NCBI RefSeq assembly: GCF_017916365.1
Contig: NZ_JAFMSU010000001.1
Location: 1,951,028 to 2,015,027, forward strand
Length of the DNA: 64,000 nucleotides
Direction: 5' to 3'
Source: Rufibacter roseolus
GTDB lineage: Bacteria; Bacteroidota; Bacteroidia; Cytophagales; Hymenobacteraceae
This document shows positions 5,271-60,165 of this stretch, in pieces. Under the pieces are notes generated by a model, which saw nothing but the letters and a program-made list of their open reading frames with translations, made no database searches and was not told the DNA's origin. Position 1 is the stretch's first letter; the number at the start of each line of letters is the position of its first letter. A program made the position numbers and the translations under genes.

Positions 5271-5313
5271 GTTTGTTTTGGGGCAGTTTCTAAGAAAACA
5301 GACCTAAAACAAC
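5271..5313. repeat. Dispersed 40-bp hairpin repeat, copy 1
   Basis: An imperfect inverted repeat: GTTTTGGGGCAGTTTC, spacer, then AAAACAGACCTAAAAC. It matches the family consensus given in the findings and lies just after the VWA gene stop. Confidence 0.6.
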
Positions 5314-5331
5314 TTGGGCAGCGTATTTACC

Positions 5332-5505
5332 TTATTTTCGGTTCAGGTCTTTGTGGCGCAGCAGGTTGCCAATGGTGCCCAAGACAATACAAACGCCAAT
5401 CAATCCATAGAAATAAGGGCGGTCCAATACATGCGTAATCCGCAGCACGGCACCAAAAACCGCCAGCAAAGCGCTGAGCGCATAAACAAGGGAAGAAGTT
5501 TTCAC
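5332..5505 (-). CDS. Small two-helix membrane protein, antisense between the VWA and AAA genes
   Basis: Reading the minus strand from GTG at 5505 gives 57 residues: an N-terminal MKTSSLVYALSALLAVFGAVL helix of about 20 hydrophobic residues, a short HVLDRPYF turn, a second helix YGLIGVCIVLGTIGNLL, and a basic tail RHKDLNRK. The hydrophobic pattern, the basic C terminus and the clean stop are what a real small membrane protein would show. Similar two-helix proteins are common in Bacteroidota. It could start two codons earlier at a TTG. It lies head-on to the VWA gene and divergent from the AAA gene. The function is unknown. Confidence 0.6.
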   Translation of the reverse strand: MKTSSLVYALSALLAVFGAVLRITHVLDRPYFYGLIGVCIVLGTIGNLLRHKDLNRK

Positions 5506-5545
5506 AAGCAATACAGTTAAAAGATAAACCTACACATAAACTTTC

Positions 5546-5582
5546 TGTTTTGCGGCTGTTTTTCTAAGAACAGGCCCAAAGC
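5546..5582. repeat. Dispersed hairpin repeat, copy 2
   Basis: TTTTGCGGCTGTTTTT, a short spacer, then AACAGGCCCAAA. It lies 35-71 bp upstream of the AAA ATPase start, so it falls in or near its 5' untranslated region. Confidence 0.55.
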
Positions 5583-5616
5583 AGCCAACCATCCCAAACC
5601 ACCAGCAATTTAACCC

Positions 5617-7152
5617 ATGCTTTATTCAGATATACCTGCAGAGCAACTGCAAAAGATTAAGACCCTGGGCCAACTCAAGGCCGCCGGCTATGAGCCGCAG
5701 AGCGTGAAAGAAGAACTGCGCGCCAACCTTATCAAAAAGCTGAGCAGCGGCGAGGAAGTGTTTCCCGGTATCTTCGGGTACGAAGAGACCGTGATCCCTG
5801 ATCTGCAGCGCGCTATCCTCAGCCGTCACCATATCAACCTGCTGGGCTTGCGCGGACAGGCTAAAACCAGAATAGCGCGTTTATTGGTGCAGCTCCTGAA
5901 CGAGTACGTGCCCGTGGTGGCCGGCTCTGAGCTGAACGATGACCCGCTGCAGCCGCTCTCGCGTTACGCCCTGGACCAGATTACCCACCATGGCGACGAG
6001 ACCGCTATTGCCTGGATGCACCGCGATGAGCGCTACACCGAGAAACTGGCTACCCCAGATGTATCCGTAGCGGACCTCATCGGCGACGCCGACCCAATCA
6101 AAGCGGCCACTCTCAAATTACCTTACTCAGACGAACGCGTGATCCACTTCGGGTTGATCCCGAGGGCGCACCGCGGCATCTTCGTGATCAACGAATTGCC
6201 GGATTTACAGGCCCGCATTCAGGTATCGCTGTTCAACATTCTGCAGGAAGGTGATATCCAGATCAGGGGTTTCAAGATCAGGCTGCCGCTGGACATTCAG
6301 TTTGTGTTCACCGCCAACCCAGAAGACTATACCAACCGCGGTTCCATTGTGACGCCGCTCAAAGACCGGATCGATTCACAGATCATCACGCACTATCCCA
6401 AGTCAATTGAGATAGGCAAGAGCATCACCAAGCAGGAGGCCCGCATCACTGAGGTGCAGCAGGAGCGCGTGAAAGGCCACGAACTTATCCATGACCTGGT
6501 AGAGCAGATCGCTTTTGAGGCCCGCGAGAGCGAATACGTAGACGCCAAAAGCGGGGTCTCGGCGCGTCTCACCATCTCGGCCTACGAGAGCGTGGTGAGT
6601 GCCGCCGAGCGCCGGGTGCTGCTCAACGCTGAGTCTTCCACACACGTGCGCATTGCTGATTTCCTGGCCGCCGTGCCTGCCGTGACAGGCAAGGTGGAGT
6701 TGGTGTACGAGGGAGAGCAGGAGGGAGCCGGCGGTGTGGCCTATCGCCTCATGGGCAAGGCCATCCGGACGCAGTTCCTCAACTACTTCCCGGACCCCGA
6801 TAAGTTCAAGAAGCAGAAAGACAAAGACCCGTACAAAAAGGTATCAGCGTGGTTCTCAGATGGCCACACCCTGGACCTGCTCAACGATGCCTCAGACGCC
6901 GAGTACAAACGCGTGCTGAACCAGGTGCCGGGCCTTTCTGAGGTGGTGAATAAGTTCCAGCCTACGCCCAAAAGCGAAGCCGAGCACCTGTTCTGGATGG
7001 AGTTCTGTTTGCATGGCTTAGCCGAGTACAGCCTGATTTCCCGCAACCGCCTTACCGCCGGCCTGCAGTTCAAAGACCTGCTCAGCAGCATGTTCTCGGG
7101 CGGCAGCTTTTCTCTCTCGGATGACGACGATGATGACAATGACCGTTATTAA
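5617..7152 (+). CDS. MoxR/magnesium-chelatase-type AAA ATPase with altered Walker B
   Basis: The 511-residue protein has a helical lead-in (1-50), then an AAA core of the ChlI/MoxR type. Walker A is GLRGQAKT (residues 77-84), with Ala before the Lys instead of Gly. The Walker B segment is IFVINE (188-193), with Asn192 where the Mg-coordinating Asp is normally found. Sensor 1 is in FTANPEDYTNRG (around 231-242), and the arginine-finger region is KDRID (250-254). The C-terminal half is helical and ends in an acidic SDDDDDDND tail. It pairs with the VWA gene upstream; such pairs act as chaperone-like or metal-insertion machines. A Mg-chelatase role is unlikely without tetrapyrrole genes nearby. 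Confidence 0.85.
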   Translation: MLYSDIPAEQLQKIKTLGQLKAAGYEPQSVKEELRANLIKKLSSGEEVFPGIFGYEETVIPDLQRAILSRHHINLLGLRGQAKTRIARLLVQLLNEYVPVVAGSELNDDPLQPLSRYALDQITHHGDETAIAWMHRDERYTEKLATPDVSVADLIGDADPIKAATLKLPYSDERVIHFGLIPRAHRGIFVINELPDLQARIQVSLFNILQEGDIQIRGFKIRLPLDIQFVFTANPEDYTNRGSIVTPLKDRIDSQIITHYPKSIEIGKSITKQEARITEVQQERVKGHELIHDLVEQIAFEARESEYVDAKSGVSARLTISAYESVVSAAERRVLLNAESSTHVRIADFLAAVPAVTGKVELVYEGEQEGAGGVAYRLMGKAIRTQFLNYFPDPDKFKKQKDKDPYKKVSAWFSDGHTLDLLNDASDAEYKRVLNQVPGLSEVVNKFQPTPKSEAEHLFWMEFCLHGLAEYSLISRNRLTAGLQFKDLLSSMFSGGSFSLSDDDDDDNDRY

Positions 7153-7181
7153 GCCGTTTTCCTGAAAACTGGCCGTAAACG
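7151..7181. repeat. Dispersed hairpin repeat, copy 3
   Basis: AAGCCGTTTTCC, spacer TG, then AAAACTGGCCGTAAACG. It starts on the stop codon of the AAA gene and directly precedes its terminator. Confidence 0.5.
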
Positions 7182-7183
7182 AT

Positions 7184-7228
7184 AAACCAAAAAGCCGGAG
7201 CAGTACTTGCTTCGGCTTTTTGGTTTTT
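7184..7228 (+). terminator. Intrinsic terminator after the AAA ATPase gene
   Basis: The arms AAACCAAAAAGCCG and CGGCTTTTTGGTTT enclose a GC-rich loop and are followed by a T-run. It ends the VWA/AAA unit. Confidence 0.85.
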
Positions 7229-7374
7229 AGGAGATTTGGTTCAATGATGATAGGTATGCTTCTCTAACACGGAAACGGTTGGGAAGTCTTCCTTTCAACT
7301 ATCCGGTAGCTTGCCCGTACGAAGCTTAGTCTGCCCGGGTAGAGGCGGCACTTATTAAGCTAAACAGGAAGATT

Positions 7375-8130: not shown

Positions 8131-8134
8131 AAAA

Positions 8135-8181
8135 AACTCCGTTTTGCAGCTGTTTTCAAAAAGCAGCCGCAAAACGGAGTT
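8135..8181. terminator. Bidirectional terminator with hairpin-repeat core
   Basis: The arms AACTCCGTTTTGC and GCAAAACGGAGTT (13 bp, perfect) flank an inner AGCTG/CAGC pairing. It lies between the convergent ZIP and cyclophilin genes. The CGTTTTG...CAAAACG arms and inner GCTGTTTT resemble the dispersed repeat family, so this copy may have been recruited as a terminator. Confidence 0.8.
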
Positions 8182-8191
8182 GAAAGGATTC

Positions 8192-8693: not shown

Positions 8694-8817
8694 AGAAATA
8701 AATGTGCTTTTAAAATGAACCACGGGCCGCCTGACAGAAAACGCCTGCCGCCCGTCCAGCAAAGATACGTAAATTTCGTGGCCTTTGGCCGATGAGCAAG
8801 ACCGCTCCTGCTGTTTA

Positions 8818-8854
8818 CGTTTTTTGGCCTTTCCTGCAAAACCAAGCCTATAAC
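8818..8854. repeat. Possible hairpin repeat copy, degenerate
   Basis: CGTTTTTTGGCCTTTCC, then AAAACCAAGCCTATAAC. The symmetry and spacing fit the dispersed family, but with several mismatches. Confidence 0.35.
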
Positions 8855-8907
8855 TACGGGACCGCTAAGGTAAATGGAAGCCATAAAGGGTCTTTGTTAA
8901 AAATCGC

Positions 8908-9510: not shown

Positions 9511-9554
9511 CCGTCCCTTTTAGGGCTACTTTTCAAAAATTAGTACCTAAATGC
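9511..9554. repeat. Dispersed hairpin repeat, copy 4
   Basis: CTTTTAGGGCTACTTTTC, then AAAAATTAGTACCTAAATG. It starts directly after the Nudix stop codon. Confidence 0.45.
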
Positions 9555-11960: not shown

Positions 11961-12002
11961 GCTGGTTTTTAGGCCGTTTTTCCGAAATCAGCCCCTAAAT
12001 GG
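11961..12002. repeat. Dispersed hairpin repeat, copy 5
   Basis: GTTTTTAGGCCGTTTTTC, then AAATCAGCCCCTAAATGG. It lies 170 bp upstream of waaA, in the gap that also holds the peroxiredoxin terminator. The rest of the 320-bp gap (11792-12111) shows no gene. Confidence 0.6.
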
Positions 12003-12111: not shown

Positions 12112-12744
12112 TTATGCGTTGGTGGTAAGGTAGTTGGCAACTCCCTCGCGGGTGGCTTGCATGCCTTCTTGGCCTTCTTCCCAGTTTGCAGGGCAAACTT
12201 CGCCTTTTTCCTCAAAGTACTGCAGAGCGTCTACCATTCTAAGTGCCTCGTCAATGCTACGGCCCAGCGGCATGTCATTCACCACTTGGTGACGCACGAC
12301 ACCTTGCTTGTCGATCAGGAACAGACCGCGGTAAGCTACTGGCTCGCCTACGAAGATCAGTTCACCTTCCTCGTTGTAGTCATAGTGACCGGCCAATACA
12401 TCAAAGTTGGAGGAGATGGTTTTGGTGGCATCGGCTACCAGCGGGTAAGTAACGCCCTCAATACCGCCTCTTTCGCGTGGGGTGTTCAACCAAGCCCAGT
12501 GCGACTGGTGGGTATCTGTAGAGCAACCAACCACGGCTACGCCTTTACGGGTGAATTCCTCTAAACGGTCCTGAAACGCGATGATTTCTGTAGGGCATAC
12601 AAAGGTAAAGTCCATTGGATAGAAGTAGAACACAACGTGCTGCTTTCCAATGTATTGGTCAAGTGAGAAATCCTCTTCAAACTCTAAATCTACTACCGCT
12701 GTAGCTTTAAAAGACGGTGCTTTTTTACCTACTAATACTGCCAT
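12112..12744 (-). CDS. Typical 2-Cys peroxiredoxin (AhpC/Prx1 family)
   Basis: The 210-residue thiol peroxidase reduces H2O2 and organic hydroperoxides. The peroxidatic Cys is in FTFVCPTE (Cys50) and the resolving Cys in EVCPANW (Cys184). The GGIEG loop typical of Prx1 enzymes is present, but the C-terminal tail (ANYLTTNA) lacks the YF motif of hyperoxidation-sensitive enzymes, suggesting a more robust form. It is cytosolic and a single-gene unit with its own promoter and terminator. The 5' leader contains a short dyad (12781-12816). The electron donor is not encoded nearby. Confidence 0.95.
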   Translation of the reverse strand: MAVLVGKKAPSFKATAVVDLEFEEDFSLDQYIGKQHVVFYFYPMDFTFVCPTEIIAFQDRLEEFTRKGVAVVGCSTDTHQSHWAWLNTPRERGGIEGVTYPLVADATKTISSNFDVLAGHYDYNEEGELIFVGEPVAYRGLFLIDKQGVVRHQVVNDMPLGRSIDEALRMVDALQYFEEKGEVCPANWEEGQEGMQATREGVANYLTTNA

Positions 12745-12856: not shown

Positions 12857-13032
12857 AAGATGGGAAATGAGTCTGTAAACTATTCTGTGTGCGTGGTTAC
12901 CTTTTGTAAACCTGTATGGTAATACTTTGTCTAAATACAAAGTTGATTTATAGTTATTTACGGGAAAATAGCCTTTAAATAGCCCAGAGAAAAAGATGAA
13001 TGTTAGATAGGATCAAGGGTTAAAAGATCCTC

Positions 13033-19411: not shown

Positions 19412-19449
19412 TCCGCTTTAGCGTTCTTTTTGAGAAAATAGCTTAGAAA
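19412..19449. repeat. Possible hairpin repeat copy, degenerate
   Basis: GCTTTAGCGTTCTTTTTG, then AGAAAATAGCTTAGAAAC. The outer and inner symmetry of the dispersed family is partly kept; the element directly precedes the terminator. Confidence 0.35.
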
Positions 19450-19450
19450 C

Positions 19451-19478
19451 AGAGCCCCGGTCAAATGGCCGGGGCTCT
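19451..19478 (+). terminator. Intrinsic terminator of the PorE-like gene
   Basis: The perfect arms AGAGCCCCGG and CCGGGGCTCT enclose an 8-nt loop and are followed by TTGTTATTT. Confidence 0.85.
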
Positions 19479-19566: not shown

Positions 19567-20289
19567 ATGTCAGTAGTTCCGTACAAAGACCAGGAAGATG
19601 GTAAGAAAAAGCAGGTGGCCCAGATGTTCAACAGCATTGCCAAACGCTATGATTTCCTTAACCATTTCCTTAGCGCAGGAGTAGACATTTACTGGCGCAA
19701 ACGGGCGGTGAAACTGCTGGAGCCGCTAAAGCCTCAGAATGTATTGGACATTGCTACCGGCACCGGGGATTTCGCGCTGGAGACCCTGCGGCTTAAACCA
19801 AAGCAGATCGTGGGGATTGATATCTCTGAGGGCATGCTGCAGGTGGGCCGGGAGAAGATAAGCAAGCGCGGCCTTAGCCACCTGGTGCAACTGCAGTTAG
19901 GCGACTCTGAGAACATCCAGTTCCCTGATAACCACTTTGACGCCATTACGGTGGCGTTTGGGGTGCGCAACTTTGAGAACCTGGAGAAAGGCCTCACTGA
20001 GATGTTTCGCGTACTGAAACCTGGCGGCATGGCGGTGATCCTGGAGTTCTCCAAGCCGCAGGCGTTCCCCATGAAACAAGGATATAATTTTTACTTCAAA
20101 CATATTTTACCCGTTTTCGGAAAACTGATCTCGAAAGACAATGCCGCTTACACCTACCTGCCAGAGTCTGTGCAGGCGTTCCCAGACGGCAATGATTTCC
20201 TGGCCATTTTCCAGAGAATCGGATTTAAAAACACAAAATGGCATTCACTTACCTTCGGCATCAGCTCCATTTACACCGGCACAAAATAG
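19567..20289 (+). CDS. ubiE: Demethylmenaquinone methyltransferase
   Basis: The 240-residue enzyme methylates demethylmenaquinone with SAM, the last step of menaquinone synthesis. It shows the UbiE/MenG signatures: N-terminal VAQMFNSIAKRYDFLNHFLS, motif I VLDIATGTGDFAL, and the C-terminal FKHILPVFGKLISKDNAAYTYLPESV region. Bacteroidota usually use menaquinone, so MenG is the likely role. The next gene, porT, starts inside its 3' end with an overlap of about 52 bp, and an SDR gene follows, so the three form one operon. Confidence 0.96.
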   Translation: MSVVPYKDQEDGKKKQVAQMFNSIAKRYDFLNHFLSAGVDIYWRKRAVKLLEPLKPQNVLDIATGTGDFALETLRLKPKQIVGIDISEGMLQVGREKISKRGLSHLVQLQLGDSENIQFPDNHFDAITVAFGVRNFENLEKGLTEMFRVLKPGGMAVILEFSKPQAFPMKQGYNFYFKHILPVFGKLISKDNAAYTYLPESVQAFPDGNDFLAIFQRIGFKNTKWHSLTFGISSIYTGTK

Positions 20290-21768: not shown

Positions 21769-21815
21769 AACAACAAGGCCCACCGGTTACAGAACCGGTG
21801 GGCCTTGTTGTTTTT
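21769..21815 (+). terminator. Terminator of the ubiE-porT-SDR operon
   Basis: The arms AACAACAAGGCCCACCGGTT and AACCGGTGGGCCTTGTTGTT are perfect (20 bp), with a small loop and a T-run. Confidence 0.9.
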
Positions 21816-21848
21816 GGGCTGTTTTCTGTAAACCAAGTTCTAAACGGG
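21815..21848. repeat. Dispersed hairpin repeat, copy 6
   Basis: GGGCTGTTTTCTGT, then AAACCAAGTTCTAAACGGG. It directly abuts the preceding terminator. Confidence 0.5.
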
Positions 21849-22287: not shown

Positions 22288-22295
22288 AGTAGAAT

Positions 22296-22334
22296 GGTTT
22301 TAAGGCTGTTTTATAAAAAACGGCTTCTAAACAG
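22296..22334. repeat. Dispersed hairpin repeat, copy 7
   Basis: GGTTTTAAGGCTGTTTTA, then AAAAAACGGCTTCTAAACAG. It lies between the convergent VOC and esterase genes and could act as a terminator for both. Confidence 0.6.
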
Positions 22335-23615: not shown

Positions 23616-24947
23616 ATGAATAAGATCCTCCTCCTGGGCGCTGGCCGCTCCGCTACCGTGCTCATCCAGTACCTGTTGTCCAACGCGCAAATCCAAGGCT
23701 GGCAAGTGGCCATCGGGGATGTCTCCATAGACCATTTAGGGCCGTTTTTGCAGGAATACCCCCAAACCAGAACGTTTCTCTTCAACGTGCAGGACGATGC
23801 GCAGCGCAAGGCAGAGATCGGCGCCGCCGATGTGGTCATCTCCATGCTGCCGGCCTTGTTTCATCCTTTAGTTGCGGAAACGTGTTTAACCTTGGATAAG
23901 CACCTGGTCACCGCCTCGTACGTGCCGCCGCAGATAAAGGCATTGCACGAGGAGGCCCAAGCCAAGGGACTGACCTTTCTCATGGAGTGTGGCCTGGACC
24001 CGGGCATCGACCATATGTCTGCCATGCGTATCATTCACCAGATCCAGGTGGCAGGAGGGACCATCACCTCGTTCAAATCCTTTACGGGTGGGCTCATGGC
24101 CCCGGAGTCCGATAACAATCCCTGGCACTACAAATTCACATGGAACCCGCGCAACGTGATTCTGGCGGGTCAGGGAACGGCCAAATACATAGAGAACGGC
24201 ACGTACAAATACATCCCGTACCCGCAGCTTTTCCGGCGCACCCAGACCTTCACGGTAGACGGCTACGGCTCCTTCGACGGCTACGCCAACCGAGACTCAC
24301 TAAGCTATCGCGAGCCCTATGGTTTGCAGAATATCCCCACCATGCTGCGGGGCACGCTTCGGCGGCCAGGTTATTGCCAGGCCTGGCAGGTGCTGGTGCA
24401 ACTGGGCCTCACCGATGACTCCTACTCCCTGGAAGATCCCGCCCGCATGACGTACCGCCAGTTGGTGGAAAGCTGCCTGCCCGAAGCCGCCCAGGAAAAA
24501 TCCCTGAAAGAGCGAGTAGCGGCCTATGTAGGCCTATCCCCGGAGGCGGAGGAACTGCGCCTGGTGGAGTGGACCGGTTTGTTTGACGAGGTTCCTATTG
24601 GGTTGGAGCATGCCACCCCAGCCCAGGCCCTGGAGAAACTGCTGACAGAGAAATGGAAGCTGAGCCCCGGCGACAAAGACATGATTGTGATGCTGCACCA
24701 GTTTGAGTACAAACAGAACGGCCAACGCAAAAAGCTGACTTCCTCCCTGGTGGTGCTAGGCGATGATGAGGTACATACCGCAATGGCGAAAACTGTAGGG
24801 CTGCCGGTGGGCATCGCGGTGAAGCTTCTGTTGCAAGGCAAACTGCAGACCAAAGGCGTGGTGGTGCCTTTGAAATCTGATTTCTATGAACCCATTCTGG
24901 AGGAACTAGAGCAGTACGGCATCCGCTTCCAGGAGCAGGAAGGATAA
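23616..24947 (+). CDS. Saccharopine dehydrogenase-like oxidoreductase
   Basis: The 443-residue protein starts with a Rossmann motif (ILLLGAGRSATVLIQYL), followed by AADVVISMLPALFHPLVAETCL and a conserved MECGLDPGIDHMSA segment that matches the saccharopine reductase C-terminal domain family. In eukaryotes the relatives take part in lysine breakdown or synthesis through saccharopine. In Bacteroidota the equivalent gene is often annotated for lysine catabolism, but a partner lysine-ketoglutarate reductase is not seen here. It is a single-gene unit and cytosolic. The family is secure; the reaction is not. Confidence 0.85.
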   Translation: MNKILLLGAGRSATVLIQYLLSNAQIQGWQVAIGDVSIDHLGPFLQEYPQTRTFLFNVQDDAQRKAEIGAADVVISMLPALFHPLVAETCLTLDKHLVTASYVPPQIKALHEEAQAKGLTFLMECGLDPGIDHMSAMRIIHQIQVAGGTITSFKSFTGGLMAPESDNNPWHYKFTWNPRNVILAGQGTAKYIENGTYKYIPYPQLFRRTQTFTVDGYGSFDGYANRDSLSYREPYGLQNIPTMLRGTLRRPGYCQAWQVLVQLGLTDDSYSLEDPARMTYRQLVESCLPEAAQEKSLKERVAAYVGLSPEAEELRLVEWTGLFDEVPIGLEHATPAQALEKLLTEKWKLSPGDKDMIVMLHQFEYKQNGQRKKLTSSLVVLGDDEVHTAMAKTVGLPVGIAVKLLLQGKLQTKGVVVPLKSDFYEPILEELEQYGIRFQEQEG

Positions 24948-24987
24948 CCGTTTAAGGCCGATTTTCGGGAAATAGCCTACAAACGGG
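24948..24987. repeat. Dispersed hairpin repeat, copy 8
   Basis: CCGTTTAAGGCCGATTTTC, then GAAATAGCCTACAAACGG. The outer CCGTTT/AAACGG arms pair perfectly. It lies between convergent genes. Confidence 0.65.
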
Positions 24988-26309: not shown

Positions 26310-26422
26310 AACGTATGCAGTTAGTCTGCCGCAAAAATACCCATCCCGCCGCAAGCCTCGGCTAAATGCGGCCAGAATATTTTCCAACGGTACATCAGCG
26401 CACTCAGGCCAATTACCCGTTC

Positions 26423-26456
26423 TGCGCCTGTTTGTCTAAAACCGACCATAAAACAG
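26423..26456. repeat. Possible hairpin repeat copy, degenerate
   Basis: GCGCCTGTTTGTCTAAAACC, then GACCATAAAACAG. Only part of the family symmetry is kept. The surrounding gap 26310-26671 also holds a small CCCCTCC/GGAGGGG dyad at 26532-26547 and a CAATCACTCAACCACT-type iteration near 26640-26668; no gene is visible. Confidence 0.3.
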
Positions 26457-27584: not shown

Positions 27585-27639
27585 TAAAAAAGCAGCCTTT
27601 TGTTTTAAGGCTGTTTTAACAAAATCGGCCCCTAAACGG
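27585..27639. terminator. Hairpin after marC, overlapping dispersed repeat copy 9
   Basis: AAAAAGCAGCCTT and AAGGCTGTTTT form a stem. The right arm is also the left arm of a dispersed repeat copy (27602-27639: GTTTTAAGGCTGTTTTA, then AAAATCGGCCCCTAAACGG). Two mutually exclusive hairpins are therefore possible. Downstream of marC on the minus strand it probably ends transcription. Confidence 0.6.
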
Positions 27640-29317: not shown

Positions 29318-29396
29318 GGGCAGCGGCAGTGGTTGGTGGTGGAACGATGCGTGAAAATTGGGCAAAAGGTACTGGACAGCGGATTGCGGAAAAGCT

Positions 29397-29437
29397 GTTT
29401 CGGGGCTGTTTTTAAGAAAATGGGCTTAAAACGAAAC
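29397..29437. repeat. Dispersed hairpin repeat, copy 10
   Basis: GTTTCGGGGCTGTTTTTA, then GAAAATGGGCTTAAAACGAAAC. The outer GTTTCG/CGAAAC arms pair perfectly. It lies 80 bp upstream of the aminotransferase start and 52 bp after the aroQ stop. Confidence 0.65.
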
Positions 29438-29488
29438 CCTGGGCAGACCTCCTGCTAAAATGACCTACACGTGAAAAACGAAGGCTGG

Positions 29489-31588: not shown

Positions 31589-31707
31589 CTAATCACCGTA
31601 GAATTCCCATCTGTTTGATGGGCGATTCTCAAGAAAAGTTTCTCAAACAGGAATGATGTGGATTTTCATCATGGCCATTTATAGCCTTAATTATCAAAAA
31701 CATCCCT

Positions 31708-31753
31708 AAAACAGAAAAGCCCGGAGCTGCTCAGCTTCGGGCTTTTCTGTTTT
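31708..31753 (-). terminator. Terminator of the large TPR/transglutaminase gene
   Basis: The arms AAAACAGAAAAGCCC and GGGCTTTTCTGTTTT flank a GC-rich inner stem with a short loop, 14 bp beyond the stop. Confidence 0.88.
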
Positions 31754-31766: not shown

Positions 31767-34700
31767 TTATTTCAGCGCCAACTGCCGGGCATCGGCGGCG
31801 ATGACTTTCTTGTAGAAGGCCTGGAACTCGGCCATCTGTTGGGGCTGGATGATGTCTTTGGTGAACCTGAGCTCGCGGGTGAACACCAGTTGGTCTTTCA
31901 CCTTCTTGTAAGTGAGCGAGTACTCGGCCACCGGGCAGGTCAGTTTCACCGATTGTGGTACCTCCGCGAGGGCTTTCTTGGCGGGCAGTGACATGGTGAT
32001 GGTTTCCCGGTCATGGTCGGCGTAGAGTAGTTGGGTCAGGTCCAGCGGGGTGGTGCGGGTCTCGTTGAAGGTGAAATCGCGGGCGGTGGCTTTGCTGGTC
32101 CAAGGCAGGGAGAACAGAGACATGCCGCCTACCTGGGTCACCACATCGTTTGCCTGGTAAGCCAGACGGCAGCGCACGGTGTCCTGGGCGCCTTCCAGCC
32201 CTTTGAAAGAAAGCTCCGTCAGTTTCACGCTGGCCATGGAGGCATTAATAGCCTGCTGCACAATCCGCTCGCGCTCCTGCTGGCCGGCATCGCGGTAACG
32301 TTGCTTGGCCTCGGCGGCCATGGCCCCGGTTTTGTAGTTTTCCTCCACCACAGACAGTCCATTGTTCACCAACTGCACTTTCACGTTGCGGTCAATGATG
32401 TTCTGGGTCCGGACTTTGGGGTTCAGGTGCGAGAGGCTGCGGTTGGCCTGGCTCTGCTCATCGTCAATTTCCAGGATACCGGACTGCAGCATGCCCTGGT
32501 ACAGACTCCCGAAGGGCAGGAAGTTAGACGTCAGCTCCACGTACATCTCTTTCTCCGGCAGGTTGATCTTGGCGATGCAGTGGTTGAAGTCAATGGAGGG
32601 CAGCACCAGGTCATCGTAGCCGTTGTCGCGGGTGTTCACCAGTACCAGTTGGGCCGGCACGCCTACCTCGCGGCACATGGCCACAAACAGCGTGGACACG
32701 TCTTTGCAGTCGCCTATTTTGGTGCTGAGCACATCAGACGGTTTCTGGGGCACCAGTCCACTCTGGCGGAACGGGATAGAGCTGTAGGTGATGTTGCTGG
32801 TGATGTACTCGTAGATGGCCTGGGCTTTCTGCACCGGGGTGAGGTTCTGCTTACCCACAAATACCTCTTCTACGGCCTGTTTCACCTCATAATCAGGGCG
32901 GGCTTTAGCGGCGGCCAGATCGGCGTACCAGTTGGAGATGAACTTCCAGTCGGGGAACGAGGAGATGTACAGGGTCTGGCTTACGTCTGAGAGCACCGGC
33001 ATCTTGTCCTCGGGCTGCATGCCCGGCTGGTCTTTCTGTTCCCACACGTAAAGCTTGAACTCATCGGCGGTCTGCACCTTAGGCTCCAGGGCTTTTTGCG
33101 TCACCTTATACTGGAACTTGGTCTCGGGGTCTACGAGCAAGCTGTAGCGAGTGGTCTGGTAAGGCAGGTAGTGGGTGAAGAAATGACGGTCCCAGAAATG
33201 CGAGGCCAGTTTGCCCAGCAGGTGGTTTTCCAGTTTGTAGGTAATATGGATGGCGTCGCCGGGCTCCAGGTTAGTGAACACCAACTGGCCATTGTTGCTC
33301 TCGGCGGGCACCTTGTTGCCGTTCTGTTTCACCACTTCGGCCTTCTCCAGGAGCTGGCGCTGCATGTTGTGGTAGTCAATGCCGTATTCCTTCCAGAACT
33401 CCACGCCCTGCTGATTGAAAGTCTTTACCACAATGGTGCGTTTCTCCTCAGAGGCGCCGCCTTTGTAGACCACTTTCTGCACTTCGTCCAGCAACACCAG
33501 GCTGCTGTGCTCTGGGTATGTGGCCGCAGCCGGGGCTTTCTTGATCAGGGCGTACACATCGGTCTGCGGGAAATAGCTGAACACCTCTTTCTTGTTCTCC
33601 AACTGGCGTAGTTCTTTGAGGCTGGTGTAATCAGTAGGGTCCAGTTGAATGGCTTTGCGGTAGGCGGCCAGTGCTTCTTCTTTTTTATCCTGGGCCTTGA
33701 GCGTTTTGGCCAGATCGGCCCAGTACTGCCCAATGTAGGGCGAGAGCTGCAGCGTTTTGCGGTAAGCTTCCTCGGCCAGTTTATGGTTCTGGGCCTGGGC
33801 GTAAATATTGCCCAGCGTGTGTTGGATGCCCACGGCCACTGGCTCTTCCTGCAGATACTGCTGGTAAAGCTTGATGCCGTTGTTCATGTCGCCTTTGTCA
33901 AAGTACACCGAGGCCAATCGCTGCGAGACGGCGTAGGAACGGTTCTCCTTCAGGAATTTCTTCAGGACATTGGCCGCACCCGCCTGGTTTTTGTTCACGT
34001 TCTTCTCAATCATGTACTTGAGCTCAATGAACGCCGGATTCTCGGGGTAATTGGTGTAGCCGCGCTCGGCCAGTTTGATGACCTCGTTGAACTGCTCTTT
34101 CTTGGACAGGACTTTGATGCGCTTGGTCAGGATAGACTCATCGAAGCCTTGCTGCTGCTCCATCTGGTCCAGCAGGGCCAGTGCCTGGGTGTAGTTCTCC
34201 TTCTCCAGTTCATCGTCAAAACGCAGGTCCAGGGAGAAAGGCAGGTTGGGGTCATGCTCTTTGAGCCATTCCAAAGCCGTGGTGAGCGAGGTTCTGTTTT
34301 CCTCGCGTTGGTAGGCCTCCAGTTGCCGCATTACAATGAAGCTGCTGGTGGGCACCATTTTCTGGGCCTGGCGGTAAACCCGGCGGGCATCAGAGGTTTT
34401 GTCGTTGCGCAGGTAGGTGTGCGCCAGCATAAGTTTGGGCAGTACCTGGGTGGGGTTGACCTGGGTTTGTTTCTGGAAGAATTCCTCTACGGCCAGGGTA
34501 ATAGGAGTAGGCGTGGCACCGGTGTCTTTGGTATAGGCCTGGTAAGCCGCGGTGGAGGTCAAGCCCTGAATAGGGTTTCCTTTCTCATCTGTGAGGCGCA
34601 CCATGAAGTTGGAGCGGCCGGCGTAGCTTTCGCCCACCTGCACCAGAATGCGGTTTTGGCCTTTTTTGAGGGAAACAGGCGTTAAATAGGTGTCCACGTC

Positions 34701-35642: not shown

Positions 35643-35684
35643 CCTGTTTTGGGGCCGATTTAAGTAAAACAGGCTTAAAACCAG
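35643..35684. repeat. Dispersed hairpin repeat, copy 11
   Basis: CCTGTTTTGGGGCCGATTTA, then AAAACAGGCTTAAAACCAG. It lies between meaB and the start of the large TPR gene, 6 bp beyond the meaB stop. Confidence 0.6.
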
Positions 35685-36673: not shown

Positions 36674-36711
36674 TCGTTTAGGGGCTGTTTTCAGAAAAGT
36701 ACGCGAAAAAT
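36673..36711. repeat. Dispersed hairpin repeat, copy 12
   Basis: CTCGTTTAGGGGCTGTTTTC, then AGAAAAGTACGCGAAAAATAC. It touches the meaB start codon, so it would fall in the meaB leader. Confidence 0.5.
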
Positions 36712-36882
36712 ACGAAAAGGACGCCTAAGAATTTCAAGACGCCCTGGTAAGGAGGGGTAACCGGAAACTGGAGTGGAAAAGGCTTAGGCCTGGGAACAGG
36801 TGGGTATACCTTAAGGAACCTACCCCGCATAGGGGTAAGACATAGCTGGCCGAATCTTATTTCAAACAAACTATTCATAGAC

Positions 36883-39478: not shown

Positions 39479-39480
39479 AG

Positions 39481-39518
39481 CGATTTGGGGCTGTTTTCTG
39501 AAAAGAAGCCCTGAAATG
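39481..39518. repeat. Dispersed hairpin repeat, copy 13
   Basis: CGATTTGGGGCTGTTTTC, then TGAAAAGAAGCCCTGAAATG. The GGGGCTgTTTT/AAAAgaAGCCCT pairing is clear. It starts 2 bp after the STAS-like stop. Confidence 0.65.
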
Positions 39519-39532
39519 AAAATAAAAGGCAT

Positions 39533-42283: not shown

Positions 42284-42324
42284 GGGTTTAGGGTCCGTTT
42301 TTGGATAACAAGGCCTAAAACAGG
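42284..42324. repeat. Dispersed hairpin repeat, copy 14
   Basis: GGGTTTAGGGTCCGTTTTTG, then GATAACAAGGCCTAAAACAGG. It lies between the unknown protein's stop and the metalloprotease start. Confidence 0.55.
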
Positions 42325-43056: not shown

Positions 43057-43330
43057 TAGAGTATAGATTTTGTTTATAGCTTATTTTATGAAAACTACCA
43101 TGAAGACACACCCTCTTTCAGGCAAGGGGCTTCCGCTTTTTTAGTTATTAATATAGAAGTATGTATTTGAAATTCAATAAAAAGGATTGTGCGGGTATAA
43201 TTAATATTGATCCTGCTTTTCTTGAGTATTTTTCTAACGAAAAAGAAAATTAGATCGGTGAGAATATATTTCTGAATGAGTTCAAGCAATGTTACACCAA
43301 CTTCAATGCATAAGCGCTTCTCATCAAGGC

Positions 43331-44283: not shown

Positions 44284-46416
<2,133 letters not shown>

Positions 46417-48615: not shown

Positions 48616-48693
48616 AAAGAAGGCAGGCGTATGATGTGGTAAAGATAGCTTTTTGCCTGAACTGTTCTACGGCTGCCGCCTGGTTTGCGATGA

Positions 48694-48735
48694 GCGTTTT
48701 ACCCCTGTTTTAAGCAAAACAGGCCCTAAATGAGC
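48694..48735. repeat. Dispersed hairpin repeat, copy 15
   Basis: The inner 20 bp CCTGTTTTAAGCAAAACAGG is a perfect 8-bp stem with a 4-nt loop. The outer arms are GCGTTTTA and CCTAAATGAGC. It lies 79 bp upstream of mutA. Confidence 0.7.
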
Positions 48736-48878
48736 CGGGTGTCTGTCAATTACCTGCATTTTCTTTTTACGGAAGGTGAAAACAGCTCTACCTCCCTAAT
48801 TTTTTAGCAGCTGGGTTTATAATACGGGTAAACTGGCTTGGGCCTGATCCTATTCTTCTGCTTTAAGATTAAGAGGTT

Positions 48879-48919
48879 CCTGTTTGTGGGCTGATTTTCT
48901 CGAAAGAGGCTCAAAGTGG
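48879..48919. repeat. Dispersed hairpin repeat, copy 16
   Basis: CCTGTTTGTGGGCTGATTTTC, in two parts, then CGAAAGAGGCTCAAAGTGG. It lies 38 bp upstream of the DUF72 gene. Apart from this and copy 15, the 341-bp gap 48616-48956 holds no gene I can support. Confidence 0.45.
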
Positions 48920-48956
48920 TCAGAACCTCTCGCCAAAATCTGCGTCTGTATGCAGC

Positions 48957-50092: not shown

Positions 50093-50127
50093 TATTAATT
50101 GACGGTTTTGCCTGTAGGGATGGAAAG

Positions 50128-50168
50128 CGTTTTAGGCCCCCTTTTCAGAAGATGGGCTGTAAACAGGA
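50128..50168. repeat. Dispersed hairpin repeat, copy 17
   Basis: GCGTTTTAGGCCCCCTTTTC, then AGAAGATGGGCTGTAAACAGG. It sits immediately before a 23-bp perfect stem (50168-50227). Confidence 0.55.
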
Positions 50169-51298: not shown

Positions 51299-51336
51299 CT
51301 GTTTAAGGCCTGTTTTCCGGAAATCGGCCTTAAAAG
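51299..51336. repeat. Dispersed hairpin repeat, copy 18
   Basis: CTGTTTAAGGCCTGTTTTCC, then GGAAATCGGCCTTAAAAG. TTTAAGGCC and GGCCTTAAA pair over 9 bp. It lies next to the terminator at 51341. Confidence 0.7.
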
Positions 51337-51340
51337 AAAA

Positions 51341-56129: not shown

Positions 56130-56177
56130 AAAGCTGTTTCAAGCCTGTTTTTACAACAGCGGTCTTGAAACAGCTTT
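56130..56177 (+). terminator. Terminator of the dnaA-rrf2 unit
   Basis: The arms AAAGCTGTTTCAAG and CTTGAAACAGCTTT are perfect (14 bp) around a 20-nt loop, followed by TTTG. Confidence 0.85.
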
Positions 56178-57790: not shown

Positions 57791-57830
57791 GCATTTCCAG
57801 CCTCTTTTTGACTTTAGAGTTTAAAAGGAA

Positions 57831-57888
57831 CAGGCATAAAACAGAAGCGGCCACCCTGCAAAGAGTGGCCGCTTCTGTTTTATGCCTG
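57831..57888. terminator. 24-bp perfect stem, bidirectional terminator
   Basis: The left arm 57831-57854 (CAGGCATAAAACAGAAGCGG, then CCAC) and right arm 57865-57888 are exact complements around a 10-nt loop. It lies between convergent genes. Confidence 0.9.
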
Positions 57889-57915
57889 TTTCAGGAAAAG
57901 AGTTCCTGAACGGAA

Positions 57916-58416
57916 TTATCTTCTGGTAGGGGTAGTAGACGTATCCGTTACCGGAATGGCGTGGCGGTCTGCTACTTCCAGGAGCTTGGTTTTGGCCAGC
58001 TGCTGGCCCTTGCGGGTGCTTACCAGCCGCAGGTTCACCAGGCACCGGCTGCCGTCGCGCATGGCAAAACGGGCTTGGGTGTTGTTGAGCGAGATGCCCG
58101 TCACATCCTGCAGGTGAATGGCTATCTTTTTCTTAAAGTGGCCTCGTTTCTCCACTACGTAAGCTGGCGTGATCTCTAAATAAGACTGTTGGCCAAACAA
58201 AGACGTGTTCTGCGCCAGGATGAACAACAGATAACCCAAAGCCAGAATCAGGAAGACATAGTGGATGAAATGCCGGTCGTTGGTGGAGGAATCGGGTTCC
58301 GTAAAAATCATGAACAACCCGTATGCCATCCACAGCAAAACCAAACCCAACTGCACCCCGAAGGAAATTTTGTGGTCACGTGACGGCCGCAACCCAACCC
58401 TAGCCAATGATTTCAT
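57916..58416 (-). CDS. Hypothetical two-helix membrane protein
   Basis: The 166-residue protein has two hydrophobic segments (FGVQLGLVLLWMAYGLFMIF and HYVFLILALGYLLFILA) at about 19-40 and 50-67. The C-terminal cytosolic part is beta-rich (YLEITPAYVVEKRGHF, KKKIAIHLQDVTGISL, RFAMRDGSRCLVNLRLVS) and resembles a small PH-like domain. No catalytic motif is visible. It is a single-gene unit converging on the 1-Cys peroxiredoxin gene. A role cannot be assigned. Confidence 0.65.
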   Translation of the reverse strand: MKSLARVGLRPSRDHKISFGVQLGLVLLWMAYGLFMIFTEPDSSTNDRHFIHYVFLILALGYLLFILAQNTSLFGQQSYLEITPAYVVEKRGHFKKKIAIHLQDVTGISLNNTQARFAMRDGSRCLVNLRLVSTRKGQQLAKTKLLEVADRHAIPVTDTSTTPTRR

Positions 58417-58480
58417 GAATTAAAATTATTGGGCAAAGATAGTGAATTTTTAATACCAGCTTTGGGGTCTGCCATCTGTA

Positions 58481-58915
58481 CTAGGCACCCTTCAAAGTGG
58501 CGGTGAGGTTCATTTCTGGTACCGAGGCCAGGGCTCTGGAGATGGGGCAGCCTTCTTTGGCTTTCTGCGCCAGTTCCTGCAGTTCATCATTTGACATGCC
58601 AGAGGCTTCCACCTCGGTGGTAAGGTCTATCCTGCGAATGAAAGGACCGTTTTCCTGACCTAGAAATACCTTGGCTTGGGTTCTTACCGAGGTGGCTTTC
58701 TTGCCGGCGTTTTCCAGCAGGCTACTTAGGAACATAGAGAAACAGCCCGCGTGCGCCGCGCCCACCAGTTCCTCGGGGTTAGTGCCTGTCATATCCTCCT
58801 CAAAACGCGACCCAAAGGAGTAACGCGCATCCAGGGTGCCGCTTTGGGTGGAAACAGTTCCTTTACCGTCTTTCAGGCCACCTTCCCAGACGCCTGTACC
58901 TGTATTATTTGCCAT
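58481..58915 (-). CDS. OsmC family peroxidase-like protein
   Basis: The 144-residue protein has the OsmC/Ohr fold: an N-terminal strand pair (GTGVWEGGLKDGKG), TNPEELVGAAHAGCFSMFLSSLL with the first reactive Cys (about residue 58), and QKAKEGCPISRAL with the second Cys (about 123). Such proteins detoxify organic hydroperoxides through the two Cys. It is cytosolic and a single-gene unit. It adds to the two peroxiredoxins of the window. Confidence 0.92.
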   Translation of the reverse strand: MANNTGTGVWEGGLKDGKGTVSTQSGTLDARYSFGSRFEEDMTGTNPEELVGAAHAGCFSMFLSSLLENAGKKATSVRTQAKVFLGQENGPFIRRIDLTTEVEASGMSNDELQELAQKAKEGCPISRALASVPEMNLTATLKGA

Positions 58916-59047
58916 AGTTTTAAGTGTATTGTTGGTTAGATATGAGATAAGGTACTAAAAAATATCCGAATTGGTTTTCCAGGGCTTATTCTGCTTTGGC
59001 CGCAACTCGTCCACCGGTCAGGACTAAAAGTACACGGATGGCCTATC

Positions 59048-59117
59048 AAACCAAAGCCAGCGGCAGAAAACAGAAAGTTTGGTGCTGCTTCCGGTTTTCT
59101 TCCGCTGGCTTTGGTTT
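59048..59117. repeat. Inverted repeat in the gap between osmC and the CHRD gene
   Basis: The arms AAACCAAAGCCAGCGG and CCGCTGGCTTTGGTTT extend to 24 bp with one mismatch (AGAAAAC and GTTTTC ends). The loop is about 22 nt. The 330-bp gap (58916-59245) has no gene. It may be a terminator or transcribed hairpin. Confidence 0.7.
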
Positions 59118-59245
59118 ACGCTAAGTGCTTGGCTGGTTTATGATAGATTCTGAGGAAACGCGTCATAAACCAACAACAATGTGGCTAAGGAAATAGTCCA
59201 TGGGCTGGAATTTCATGGGCTTTTCCGATTTGTTTTAACACCGTT

Positions 59246-59758
59246 TTACTTCACCTGCCCTCTTATTTCCCCGGCCGGGTAGGTAGGCGAATGGACGTTG
59301 GTGTAGATATTGCCCGCTTCTATGGCCGCAATCAGATCAGAGAGGGTTTTCCCGGCCAAAGGTCCTTTCAGGGAAGCGCTGGTGATGATGCCCTCGGCAA
59401 TGACGCCCGAAGGATTGGAGACACTGCCCACCAGATCCACCACTACAGGTCCGTTTTCACCGGCTGGGGCCATGTGCAGGTGCCCAAAAAGCACCGATTC
59501 CATGTTGGCCACAATTAACTTGTAATAGAGCTGGGTTCCGTCTTTGCTTAATCTAAGGATAATCTGACCGGTGGCATTACTGATCACCTCCCGGGTTTCT
59601 TCTTCCGGCCGAAGATGCGCCGTGTACGTGTAAGGCGATTGCGCATCAGCGGTTTTCGCCACCGCGGCTACGTTTTGGGGTTCAACTAATTCTGTGTCGC
59701 AACTACTCAGGCAGAGCGACATCACCATGACGGGTAATGCATAGATAAAATTTTTCAT
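59246..59758 (-). CDS. CHRD domain lipoprotein
   Basis: The 170-residue protein has a lipobox (MSLCLSSCDTELV, Cys about residue 20). The CHRD (chordin-like) domain follows: YTAHLRPEEETREV, GQIILRLSKDGTQLYYKLIVANMESVLFGHLHMAP, NGPVVVDLVGS, and ISAIEAGNIYTNVHSPTYPAGEIRG, in parts. CHRD domains in bacteria are of unknown function, and the protein is expected on a membrane surface facing the periplasm or exterior. It is a single-gene unit. Confidence 0.88.
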   Translation of the reverse strand: MKNFIYALPVMVMSLCLSSCDTELVEPQNVAAVAKTADAQSPYTYTAHLRPEEETREVISNATGQIILRLSKDGTQLYYKLIVANMESVLFGHLHMAPAGENGPVVVDLVGSVSNPSGVIAEGIITSASLKGPLAGKTLSDLIAAIEAGNIYTNVHSPTYPAGEIRGQVK

Positions 59759-60023
59759 ATGGTTGATTTATAAATAGTTGAATAACAGTATATATAACCT
59801 GACCCACAAAGCAAGGTTTTGTTATAAGCTATGTTTATATCTTTATATGTAGCCAAGGTGTCTAATGGCCCGTTTAGGCCAGGTTTTTACCGGATTTTGA
59901 AATAGGGTAGAGGTGTAAACGTTTGAAATACAGAAGTATGCAACTCCATTTTGCTCCCATGTTGAGAGTTGAAAACTTGGCTTACTGAGGAGAATGCAAA
60001 ACTGGCTACCGCACTAGATGTAA

Positions 60024-60068
60024 AGCTGTTTTAGGGCCGGTTTTCTCAAAGCAACCCTGGAACATAAC
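60024..60068. repeat. Dispersed hairpin repeat, copy 19
   Basis: AGCTGTTTTAGGGCCGGTTTTC, in two parts, then AAAGCAACCCTGGAACATAAC. Confidence 0.5.
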
Positions 60069-60125
60069 GGTAGTCTTTCTAATAGAAAAGGTGAAGAACC
60101 ATAAGAACCTTTGTGAGAGAAGCTT

Positions 60126-60165
60126 CCGTTTTGAAGCCAGTTTTAGGAAAAGGGGCCTTAAATGG
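60126..60165. repeat. Dispersed hairpin repeat, copy 20
   Basis: CCGTTTTGAAGCCAGTTTTA, then GGAAAAGGGGCCTTAAATGG. It lies 136 bp upstream of the GH3 family gene. Confidence 0.55.

What the first reader, a model, noticed from the sequence alone, without database searches (positions are those of the whole stretch)
5271..60165. A dispersed family of about 20 imperfect 40-bp hairpins in the gaps between genes
The same design recurs in intergenic gaps: an outer CGTTTTA-like arm, GGGCTGTTTT, 2-6 bp of spacer, AAAACAGGCCC, then TAAAACG. Clear copies are at 5271, 5546, 7151, 9511, 11961, 21815, 22296, 24948, 27602, 29397, 35643, 36673, 39481, 42284, 48694, 48879, 50128, 51299, 60024 and 60126, with weaker ones at 8818, 19412 and 26423. 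Outer bases vary but often change in pairs (CCGTTT/AAACGG, GTTTCG/CGAAAC), which points to selection on the fold or on palindromic DNA. Copies occur both before starts and after stops. I know of no named family of this form in Hymenobacteraceae, so this may be an undescribed REP-like element.
Basis: seen in the sequence. Interest (0 to 1): 0.75.

Follow-up and report, generated by a model that had tools for sequence, protein, structure and literature searches.

The report
Three thousand fixed palindromic chromosome marks
The chromosome of a Rufibacter bacterium carries a 40-base palindrome about every 1.7 kilobases, mostly between genes; the copies stay at the same places in related species and only short T/A runs in them are well protected from mutation, so they look like fixed landing sites for an unknown DNA-reading protein rather than hopping elements or RNA hairpins.

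Summary
The interpretation changes. No empty site was seen in 222 flank-aligned comparisons, and occupancy of orthologous gaps agrees across 13 Rufibacter genomes. Within genomes the arms hardly covary (excess in 2 of 14); between close relatives the G/C arms diverge like flanks (21%), the T/A tracts TT-N9-TTT-N4-AAA-N9-AA only 5%. Half-sites occur inverted, usually 4 bp apart. Copies are mostly one per gap and evenly spaced (mean 1.65 kb); some lie inside genes. Species have dialects around the same core. A 100-kb low-GC contig has 2 copies; 53 of 64 genomes of other genera have none. REP/RAYT and terminator readings fail their tests. Best reading: a genus-specific, two-fold symmetric protein-binding site marking the host chromosome, statistically like DNA uptake sequences, but palindromic and without a recognisable type IV pilus motor; a nucleoid or insulator site is nearly as likely. 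The protein is unknown.

The parts
1323..1362 (.). site copy, coding, score 28.2, core 10/10
2161..2200 (.). site copy, gap, 25.7, core 8/10
3593..3632 (.). site copy, gap, 19.1, core 9/10
5273..5312 (.). site copy, gap, 39.6, core 9/10
5545..5584 (.). site copy, gap, 40.4, core 9/10
7143..7182 (.). site copy, gap (overlaps the end of the gene 5617-7152), 34.0, core 9/10
8138..8177 (.). site copy, gap, 22.3, core 10/10
8817..8856 (.). weak site copy, gap, 19.3, core 7/10
9515..9554 (.). site copy just after a stop, 28.7, core 10/10
11963..12002 (.). site copy, gap, 39.7, core 10/10
12540..12579 (.). site copy, coding, 19.4, core 8/10
12943..12982 (.). site copy, gap, 27.6, core 9/10
19413..19452 (.). 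site copy, gap, 33.2, core 10/10
20100..20139 (.). site copy, coding, 17.2, core 9/10
20193..20232 (.). site copy, coding, 16.2, core 9/10
21808..21847 (.). site copy, gap, 37.9, core 10/10; follows a GC-rich hairpin whose T-tract overlaps it
22295..22334 (.). site copy, convergent gap, 40.2, core 10/10
23731..23770 (.). site copy, coding, 23.8, core 8/10
24947..24986 (.). site copy abutting a stop, convergent gap, 28.6, core 9/10
26417..26456 (.). site copy, gap, 28.8, core 8/10
27600..27639 (.). site copy, gap, 43.0, core 10/10
29395..29434 (.). site copy, gap, 44.2, core 10/10; a copy found in the orthologous gap of 16 of 16 genus genomes
31675..31714 (.). site copy, gap, 31.7, core 9/10
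34650..34689 (.). site copy, coding, 31.8, core 9/10
35644..35683 (.). site copy, gap, 41.7, core 10/10
36674..36713 (.). site copy, gap, 34.9, core 10/10
39480..39519 (.). site copy after a stop, convergent gap, 35.8, core 10/10
42284..42323 (.). site copy, gap, 31.8, core 9/10
43070..43109 (.). site copy, gap, 20.4, core 9/10
46347..46386 (.). site copy, coding, 25.9, core 8/10
48694..48733 (.). site copy, divergent gap, 36.6, core 10/10
48880..48919 (.). site copy, same divergent gap, 29.9, core 9/10
50127..50166 (.). site copy, gap, 30.5, core 9/10
51299..51338 (.). site copy, gap, 42.3, core 10/10
56134..56173 (.). site copy, gap, 31.3, core 9/10
57875..57914 (.). site copy, gap, 21.2, core 9/10
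59133..59172 (.). weak site copy, gap, 16.1, core 8/10
60026..60065 (.). site copy, gap, 31.4, core 9/10
60126..60165 (.). site copy, gap, 34.5, core 10/10
62800..62839 (.). site copy, coding, 27.6, core 10/10

Best explanation
SHOWN: the family is a position-conserved, two-fold symmetric DNA site with the constrained core TT-N9-TTT-N4-AAA-N9-AA, present about once per 1.7 kb in the sampled Rufibacter chromosome, usually one per gap and sometimes inside genes. INFERRED: a dimeric (or tetrameric) protein reads the inverted half-sites as duplex DNA. The sites work as chromosome-wide self marks, in the way DNA uptake sequences do: a recognition protein favours self DNA that carries the site during DNA acquisition or recombination, and this keeps the core constrained, spaces the sites evenly at about the length of an exchanged fragment, confines them to permissive positions, leaves acquired replicons poor in them, and lets species drift into dialects at unchanged positions. 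The protein and the process it serves are not identified.
For: Core 25/499 (5.0%) divergent against other arm columns 269/1296 (20.8%), loop 55/200, flanks 18-24% between G000 and G004 (50 gap copies; Fisher p 1e-18 core vs arms); the same pattern in G000-G003 and G007-G014. Half-sites inverted, mostly 4 bp apart. 0 of 222 empty sites. Occupancy of orthologous gaps: 169 of 186 where G000 has a copy, 20 of 136 where it has none (summed over 12 genomes). Spacing mean 1,652 bp, CV 0.85 against 1.31 +/- 0.09 in a gap-weighted null, 0 of 300; counts per 20 kb var/mean 0.51. Coding copies lie further from gap copies than random coding positions (eight genomes, n 100, mean percentile 0.597, z 3.35; in G000 alone p 0.07); their third-codon core positions are conserved (4/42 vs 8674/33055 mismatched, p 0.007). 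Dialects with unchanged core. 2 copies in 100 kb of contig C4. Neisserial DUS: spacing 1.1-1.5 kb, 97% identity inside about 85% identical surroundings, permissive sites, absent from recently acquired genes (PMC2397512, passages); dialects sharing a 3-nt core (PMC3630211, passages).
Against: The known DUS/USS cores described in the passages that I saw are 9-12 bp and not 40-bp palindromes. G000 has ComEC but no T2SSE/PilB-type ATPase above cut-off, so no type IV pilus uptake of the neisserial kind is in evidence. Coding copies are rare in the high-information genomes (2-5% in G005, G013, G007, G014, G001, G006; 10-22% in the other eight). In G013 and G005 the G/C arms and much of the loop are homogenised too, which suggests copying or conversion beyond a binding core. 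Accessory window genes (in at most 2 of 6 relatives' fetched regions) still have copies nearby (10 of 11, against 35 of 45 for shared genes), and the 7.3-kb contig C5 has 4 copies. Repulsion between gap sites is weak after length and orientation are allowed for (coefficient 0.22-0.27 +/- 0.10; not different from 0 in G005/G013/G001). I made no test of transformation and my searches listed none for Rufibacter.
Confidence: 0.42

Rival explanations
1. Nucleoid-organising or insulating site: a genus-specific dimeric nucleoid protein binds one site between neighbouring transcription units and bends, bridges or insulates the DNA; phased T/A tracts suit bending.
For: Number per gap saturates near one and all gap orientations are used; divergent gaps under 180 bp nearly free (1 of 13), those of 180-400 bp occupied in 10 of 17, and 19 of 24 copies in divergent gaps lie at least 80 bp from both starts; two-fold symmetry with a 4-bp centre; core-only constraint; sparse on contig C4.
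Against: Coding copies in the middle of long genes do not fit a boundary role; species dialects in weakly constrained columns are not predicted; no such protein is known to me and one full-text search listed none.
Confidence: 0.33
2. Relic of an old REP/MITE-like burst: copies spread before the genus radiated, were later taken into service (T/A core), and in some species are still homogenised by conversion.
For: Near-clonal copies, loops included, in G013 and G005; essential restriction to the genus; 15 of 16 genomes have a Y1 transposase match, some with the NH[LV]H / YIHQNP motifs that a paper gives for a Bacteroidetes RAYT subclass flanked by atypical structures (PMC6006769, passages); within 700 bp of the match centre copies lie on both sides in 13 of 30 Y1 loci against 109 of 461 control genes (p 0.017, cut-off chosen afterwards).
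Against: 0 of 222 empty sites; no GTAG/CGTC tag; G007 without any Y1 match keeps good copies; within 600 bp 5 of 30 against 95 of 461, and measured from the gene ends, in the 16 of 30 loci whose frame I could call, both-sided copies within 300 bp in 2 of 16 against 93 of 459; coding copies in any frame; few orphan half-sites.
Confidence: 0.14
3. RNA hairpin at transcript ends: a bidirectional terminator or 3'-end stabiliser.
For: Copies lie nearer the upstream stop than the next start in tandem gaps under 400 bp (46 vs 16) and occupy 31 of 44 convergent gaps; 8-18% of copies in six genomes (G000, G005, G006, G007, G014, G013) are extended by at least 4 bp of locus-specific complementary flanks, against 1-5% when flanks are permuted; small pairing excess within G000 and G006.
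Against: No pairing excess within the other 12 genomes; arm-swapped chimeras fold only slightly less stably, not significant in any of six genomes; G/C pairs drift like flanks in the G000 lineage; an outward T-run at only 10-20% of sides; copies inside genes and in divergent gaps.
Confidence: 0.09
4. Compositional artefact of AT-rich gaps.
For: Gaps are AT-richer than the window as a whole (0.41-0.44 G+C in four Rufibacter samples; window 0.527).
Against: 31 copies in the window gaps against at most 1 in 50 dinucleotide shuffles; 259 vs 1 in reversed sequence; five other genera of the family give 0-2 per 80 kb with the same matrix.
Confidence: 0.01

Closest known systems
DNA uptake sequences (DUS) of Neisseriaceae and USS of Pasteurellaceae
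   Same: Thousands of copies, spacing of 1-1.7 kb, permissive mostly intergenic positions with some in genes, strong conservation inside diverged surroundings, clade dialects with a common core, poor in acquired DNA.
   Different: Here a 40-bp two-fold symmetric site with four T/A tracts; strong avoidance of genes; no type IV pilus/T2S motor found in G000; no uptake data.
REP / REPIN elements with RAYT (GTAG family) and CGTC-tagged palindromes
   Same: 20-40 bp palindromes, high copy number, mostly extragenic, species-specific variants.
   Different: No tag, no specially flanked transposase, no empty sites seen, constraint on T/A tracts and not on the stem, near-fixed 4-bp centre.
Nucleoid-protein sites such as matS/MatP, Noc, ParB/parS (recalled, no call)
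   Same: Palindromic duplex sites read by a dimer, placed for chromosome organisation.
   Different: About 3,000 copies genome-wide and a longer four-tract core; no protein identified.
HIP1 of cyanobacteria (recalled, no call)
   Same: Very abundant, widely scattered palindrome of unclear role.
   Different: HIP1 is 8 bp and common in genes; this one is 40 bp, mostly intergenic and position-conserved.

Membership tests
REP (GTAG) / RAYT system | GTAG tetranucleotide at one end | tested here: not met
   GTAG at ends 0-5% vs 3-10% in outer control, four genomes
REP (GTAG) / RAYT system | RAYT gene flanked by copies of the repeat | tested here: not met
   G007 has no Y1_Tnp match; both sides within 600 bp of the match centre 5 of 30 vs 95 of 461 control genes, within 700 bp 13 of 30 vs 109 of 461; from gene ends, within 300 bp, 2 of 16 vs 93 of 459
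REP (GTAG) / RAYT system | Mobility: presence/absence at orthologous places | tested here: not met
   0 of 222 empty sites, between species only
CGTC-tagged palindromes | CGTC at one end | tested here: not met
   0-5% at ends vs 3-7% in outer control, four genomes
DUS/USS | Over-represented genome-wide, evenly spaced near the exchange-fragment length | tested here: inconclusive
   Over-representation and even spacing met; the exchange-fragment length was not measured
DUS/USS | Site conserved beyond its surroundings, with clade dialects sharing a core | tested here: met
DUS/USS | Poor in acquired DNA | tested here: inconclusive
   2 copies in 100 kb of contig C4, but accessory window genes have copies nearby
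DUS/USS | Competence machinery with a DNA receptor on a type IV pilus or similar | tested here: not met
   ComEC in 16 of 16; no T2SSE above cut-off in G000, the only genome of the genus searched for it
DUS/USS | Site raises DNA uptake or transformation | not testable with these tools
   needs an experiment
Intrinsic terminator | Stable hairpin followed by a T-run | tested here: not met
   outward T-run at 10-20% of sides; little fold-level constraint
Nucleoid-protein site | Bound in the cell by a defined nucleoid protein | not testable with these tools
   needs ChIP-seq or pull-down
Rfam RNA families | Covariance-model match | tested here: not met
   0 matches in the window at gathering scores

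The most novel reading that the evidence does not exclude
A Bacteroidota genus marks its whole chromosome with about 3,000 fixed palindromic sites read by an unknown dimeric protein, a self-recognition or chromosome-architecture code of a kind not yet described: even spacing, species dialects around an invariant four-tract core, and almost none on an accessory replicon.
Probability: 0.45. Interest if true: 0.88.

Novelty: new variant of a known kind. Interest (0 to 1): 0.72.

Why it matters
If right, Rufibacter has either a sequence-specific self-DNA mark in Bacteroidota, outside the type IV pilus systems in which I know DUS and USS, or a nucleoid protein with thousands of exact sites. Either makes a question testable that is usually only argued about: how thousands of dispersed sites change their sequence in concert at unchanged positions. 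It also warns that a perfect-looking hairpin family can be a duplex-DNA site, which substitution rates between relatives show and folding does not.

Tried and rejected
Intrinsic terminator: T-runs at 10-20% of sides only. RNA fold under selection: arm-swap tests and column rates speak against it as a general rule, though 8-18% of copies in six genomes have complementary outer flanks and G000 and G006 show a small within-genome pairing excess. REP/RAYT; a both-sided excess around Y1 matches at 700 bp (p 0.017, cut-off chosen after the result) did not hold at 600 bp or from gene ends. An autonomous parent element with separated half-sites: 1-8 orphan half-sites per sample in five genomes; three strong ones in G001 lie within about 105 bases of a contig end, one strong one in G006 is unexplained. 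LexA of Bacteroidetes: its reported motifs CTAA-N5-TTAG and GGA-N5-TCC (PMC8565304, passages) are unlike this core. Similar palindromes of other sequence in five other genera: none stood out, but the word test was weak, as it also missed the family in G009. tRNA: none in the window.

Limits: gene calls are from my own hexamer caller, trained on G000 except, so gap and coding labels are approximate; the 3,000 figure is extrapolated from 464 kb of 5.5 Mb; matrices were trained per genome on the sequences they then scored, except the held-out one; the tree rests on three proteins and has weak deep nodes; one search stops at 150 scored candidates per genome, so it proves presence, not number; the empty-site test used 11 ordered pairs among nine genomes, so many sites were counted from both sides; one search used the window and six of eight other stretches (two aligned under 20% and were dropped). 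In some searches and 82 loci of G008 and G012 were scored with the G000 matrix. I did not use the structure-prediction tools.


Full report
CHECK OF THE OBSERVATION. A weight matrix trained by iteration on the window and twenty 20-kb stretches of the same genome, made symmetric about the centre, finds 40 copies in the window and none in its reversed sequence, and 259 against 1 in 464 kb. A matrix trained without the window finds 38 against 0, and 31 in the 47 window gaps against a mean of 0.06 (at most 1) in 50 dinucleotide shuffles of those gaps. At 0.56 per kb the 5.5-Mb genome should hold about 3,000 (extrapolated). The consensus is CCGTTTTnGGGCTGTTTT-nnnn-AAAACAGCCCnAAAACGG. Pooled over 14 genome samples, strong half-sites form inverted pairs at 4 bp (770), 3 (111), 5 (100), 6 (9) and 2 (6), none at the other spacings tested from -2 to 12, with 1 in all reversed sequences and 8 direct pairs in all.

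WHERE IT OCCURS. The own genome belongs to Rufibacter by inference: G001, of the same genus, has contigs of 250,496 and 107,997 bases, as Rufibacter ruber CCM 8646 does, and G010 shares a 462,340-base contig with Rufibacter sp. XAAS-G3-1; the species of the window genome is not known. The exact core is present in 15 of 16 genomes of the genus and 0 of 43 outside. A sequence-only model built from 79 copies reaches its match limit in 16 of 16 genus genomes and gives 1 to 6 matches (both strands counted) in 11 of 64 genomes of other genera, none in 53 (stricter filters, E up to 0.01).

PLACEMENT. With my own gene caller, 205 of 259 copies are in gaps and 54 inside genes, although gaps are about a fifth of the DNA. 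Between confidently called genes, convergent gaps of 80-180 bp are occupied in 14 of 17, tandem gaps of 180-400 bp in 34 of 45, divergent gaps under 180 bp in 1 of 13 and of 180-400 bp in 10 of 17. In tandem gaps under 400 bp, 46 of 62 copies lie nearer the upstream stop; of 24 copies in divergent gaps, 19 lie at least 80 bp from both starts. The number per gap saturates near one (variance/mean 0.4-0.8), and spacing is more even than when copies are dealt to gaps by length (CV 0.85 vs 1.31 +/- 0.09, 0 of 300). Coding copies are further from gap copies than random coding positions (n 100 in eight genomes, mean percentile 0.597; in G000 alone the difference has p 0.07), so they tend to fill deserts. 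In a regression on gaps, distance to the next site has a small positive effect (0.22 +/- 0.10; not different from 0 in G005/G013/G001).

NOT SEEN TO MOVE. For gaps of the window that could be matched between orthologous neighbours in 12 relatives, a copy is present in 169 of 186 cases where G000 has one and in 20 of 136 where it has none (sums of the table). The gap at 29,318-29,488 is occupied in 16 of 16 genomes, with outer flanks mostly diverged. Among 222 comparisons with both flanks aligned (11 ordered pairs among nine genomes), 220 sites are occupied, 2 partial and 0 empty. G007, with well-kept copies, has no Y1 transposase match. Copies lie on both sides within 600 bp of the match centre in 5 of 30 Y1 loci against 95 of 461 control genes, and within 700 bp in 13 of 30 against 109 of 461 (p 0.017, cut-off chosen afterwards). 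From the gene ends, in 16 of 30 loci whose frame could be called, both-sided copies within 300 bp occur in 2 of 16 against 93 of 459. GTAG and CGTC tags are not enriched at the ends.

WHAT IS UNDER SELECTION. Between G000 and G004, over 50 gap copies, columns 5-6 and 16-18 with their mirror columns differ in 25 of 499 cases (5.0%), other arm columns in 269 of 1296 (20.8%), the loop in 55 of 200 (27.5%), and flanks in 18-24%. Column 12 (9%) and column 4 (13%) are intermediate. So in this lineage most of the G/C arm, the very thing that makes the hairpin, drifts like neighbouring DNA, and TT-N9-TTT-N4-AAA-N9-AA is kept. G000-G003 and G007-G014 show the same core (11.3% vs 29.4%; 5.7% vs 15.5%), with some extra arm constraint in G007-G014 (flanks 23-25%). 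Coding copies follow: core 5 of 130 against 35 of 338 in other arm columns; third-codon core positions 4 of 42, other third positions in the site 26 of 132, elsewhere 8674 of 33055 (p 0.007 and 0.05).

FOLD. Replacing each right arm by that of another copy lowers pairing from 11.04 to 10.54 of 18 in G000 (z 5.3) and from 13.76 to 12.94 in G006 (z 3.9); in the other 12 genomes z lies between -1.6 and 1.1. Folding energies of swapped copies are 0.2 to 3.5 kcal/mol weaker on average, not significant in any of six genomes. On the cross-species alignment covariation is clear (0 of 500 shuffles), because the two arms change together between species dialects.

DIALECTS. Genomes differ in consensus around an unchanged core: G013 CCGTTTTCGGGCTCATTT, G005 GCGTTTAGGGGCTGTTTT, G007 and G014 CCGTTTTTGGCCTGTTTT (left arms). 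Information content runs from 23 bits (G009) to 50 bits (G013). Orthologous copies of G000 and G004 are 78% identical against 59% for non-orthologous ones, but those of G000 and G005 62% against 62%. On a small three-protein tree seven of the low-information genomes form one group beside G005, and G002 lies elsewhere; deep nodes are weakly supported. As the positions are old, I infer that dialects changed in place; this needs a homogenising force (drive, conversion or selection), which I cannot identify.

ACCESSORY DNA. Contig C4 (101.9 kb, G+C 0.448; among eight long proteins scanned, a type I restriction subunit, leucine-rich repeats and secretion-tail domains) has 2 copies in 100 kb; contig C5 (7.3 kb) has 4. 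Against a simple core-genome rule, window genes found in at most 2 of 6 relatives have a copy within 250 bp in 10 of 11 cases, compared with 35 of 45 for shared genes.

INTERPRETATION. Two-fold symmetry, a near-fixed centre, constraint on the core, little pairing constraint and use of all gap orientations point to a duplex site read by a dimer. The nearest statistical match that I found in print is the DUS of Neisseria: mean spacing 1.1-1.5 kb, 97% identity in about 85% identical surroundings, permissive positions, absent from recently acquired genes (PMC2397512, passages), dialects with a shared 3-nt core (PMC3630211, passages); USS has helically phased AT-rich segments (PMC1626085, passages). 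But G000 lacks a T2SSE/PilB match above cut-off although ComEC is present in 16 of 16, and the DUS and USS of these papers are not 40-bp palindromes. I therefore rate a DUS-like self mark at 0.42 and a nucleoid or insulator site at 0.33, with the shared claim, a fixed protein-binding site and not a hairpin RNA or a mobile element, at about 0.75.

LITERATURE. Searches for Hymenobacter with palindromic repeats, Bacteroidetes REP families, Rufibacter genome papers, REP with Hymenobacteraceae, uptake sequences in Bacteroidetes, palindromic nucleoid sites in Bacteroidetes, REPIN/RAYT in Bacteroidetes, and Rufibacter or repeat terms listed no description of this family among the rows shown (listings only; searches had more papers than were listed); subscription journals are mostly not held. 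REP comparison: PMC3733652 (passages) and PMC6006769 (passages), which reports a Bacteroidetes RAYT subclass flanked by atypical structures; several Rufibacter Y1 proteins carry its motifs, a lead tested here only through.

Noticed in passing
G000 contig C4 (L347-L351): A 101.9-kb low-GC contig (0.448) with a type I restriction subunit and secretion-tail proteins carries only 2 copies of the site in 100 kb; probably a plasmid or acquired replicon.
   Followed up: partly
G000, G005, G006, G007, G014, G013 samples: 8-18% of copies in these genomes are continued outward by at least 4 bp of locus-specific complementary flank (up to 16 bp), as if the site sat in the loop of another hairpin or terminator; none in G009, G010, G011, G015.
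   Followed up: partly
48616-48956: A divergent gap with two copies about 185 bp apart in G000 and in 8 of 12 relatives, one copy in the other 4; no tRNA found; an unannotated small gene or RNA may lie between.
   Followed up: no
L043, L046, L047 (G001 contig ends): Strong half-sites lie within about 105 bases of contig ends, so the short-read assembly of R. ruber seems to break at the palindromes.
   Followed up: no
L095:14559 (G006): A strong half-site (26.6 of at most 28.5) with no full copy scored around it.
   Followed up: no
G096 (genus g3): Six model matches (both strands counted) in one genome of another genus, best E 3e-8; perhaps DNA transferred from Rufibacter.
   Followed up: no
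L154, L157, L162, L173, L161, L165: Rufibacter Y1 transposase proteins with NH[LV]H and YIHQNP or YVHQNP motifs, like the Bacteroidetes RAYT subclass 2.6 of PMC6006769.
   Followed up: partly
21770-21815: A GC-rich hairpin ends in a T-tract that overlaps the left arm of the site, so a canonical terminator stands directly beside a copy.
   Followed up: no
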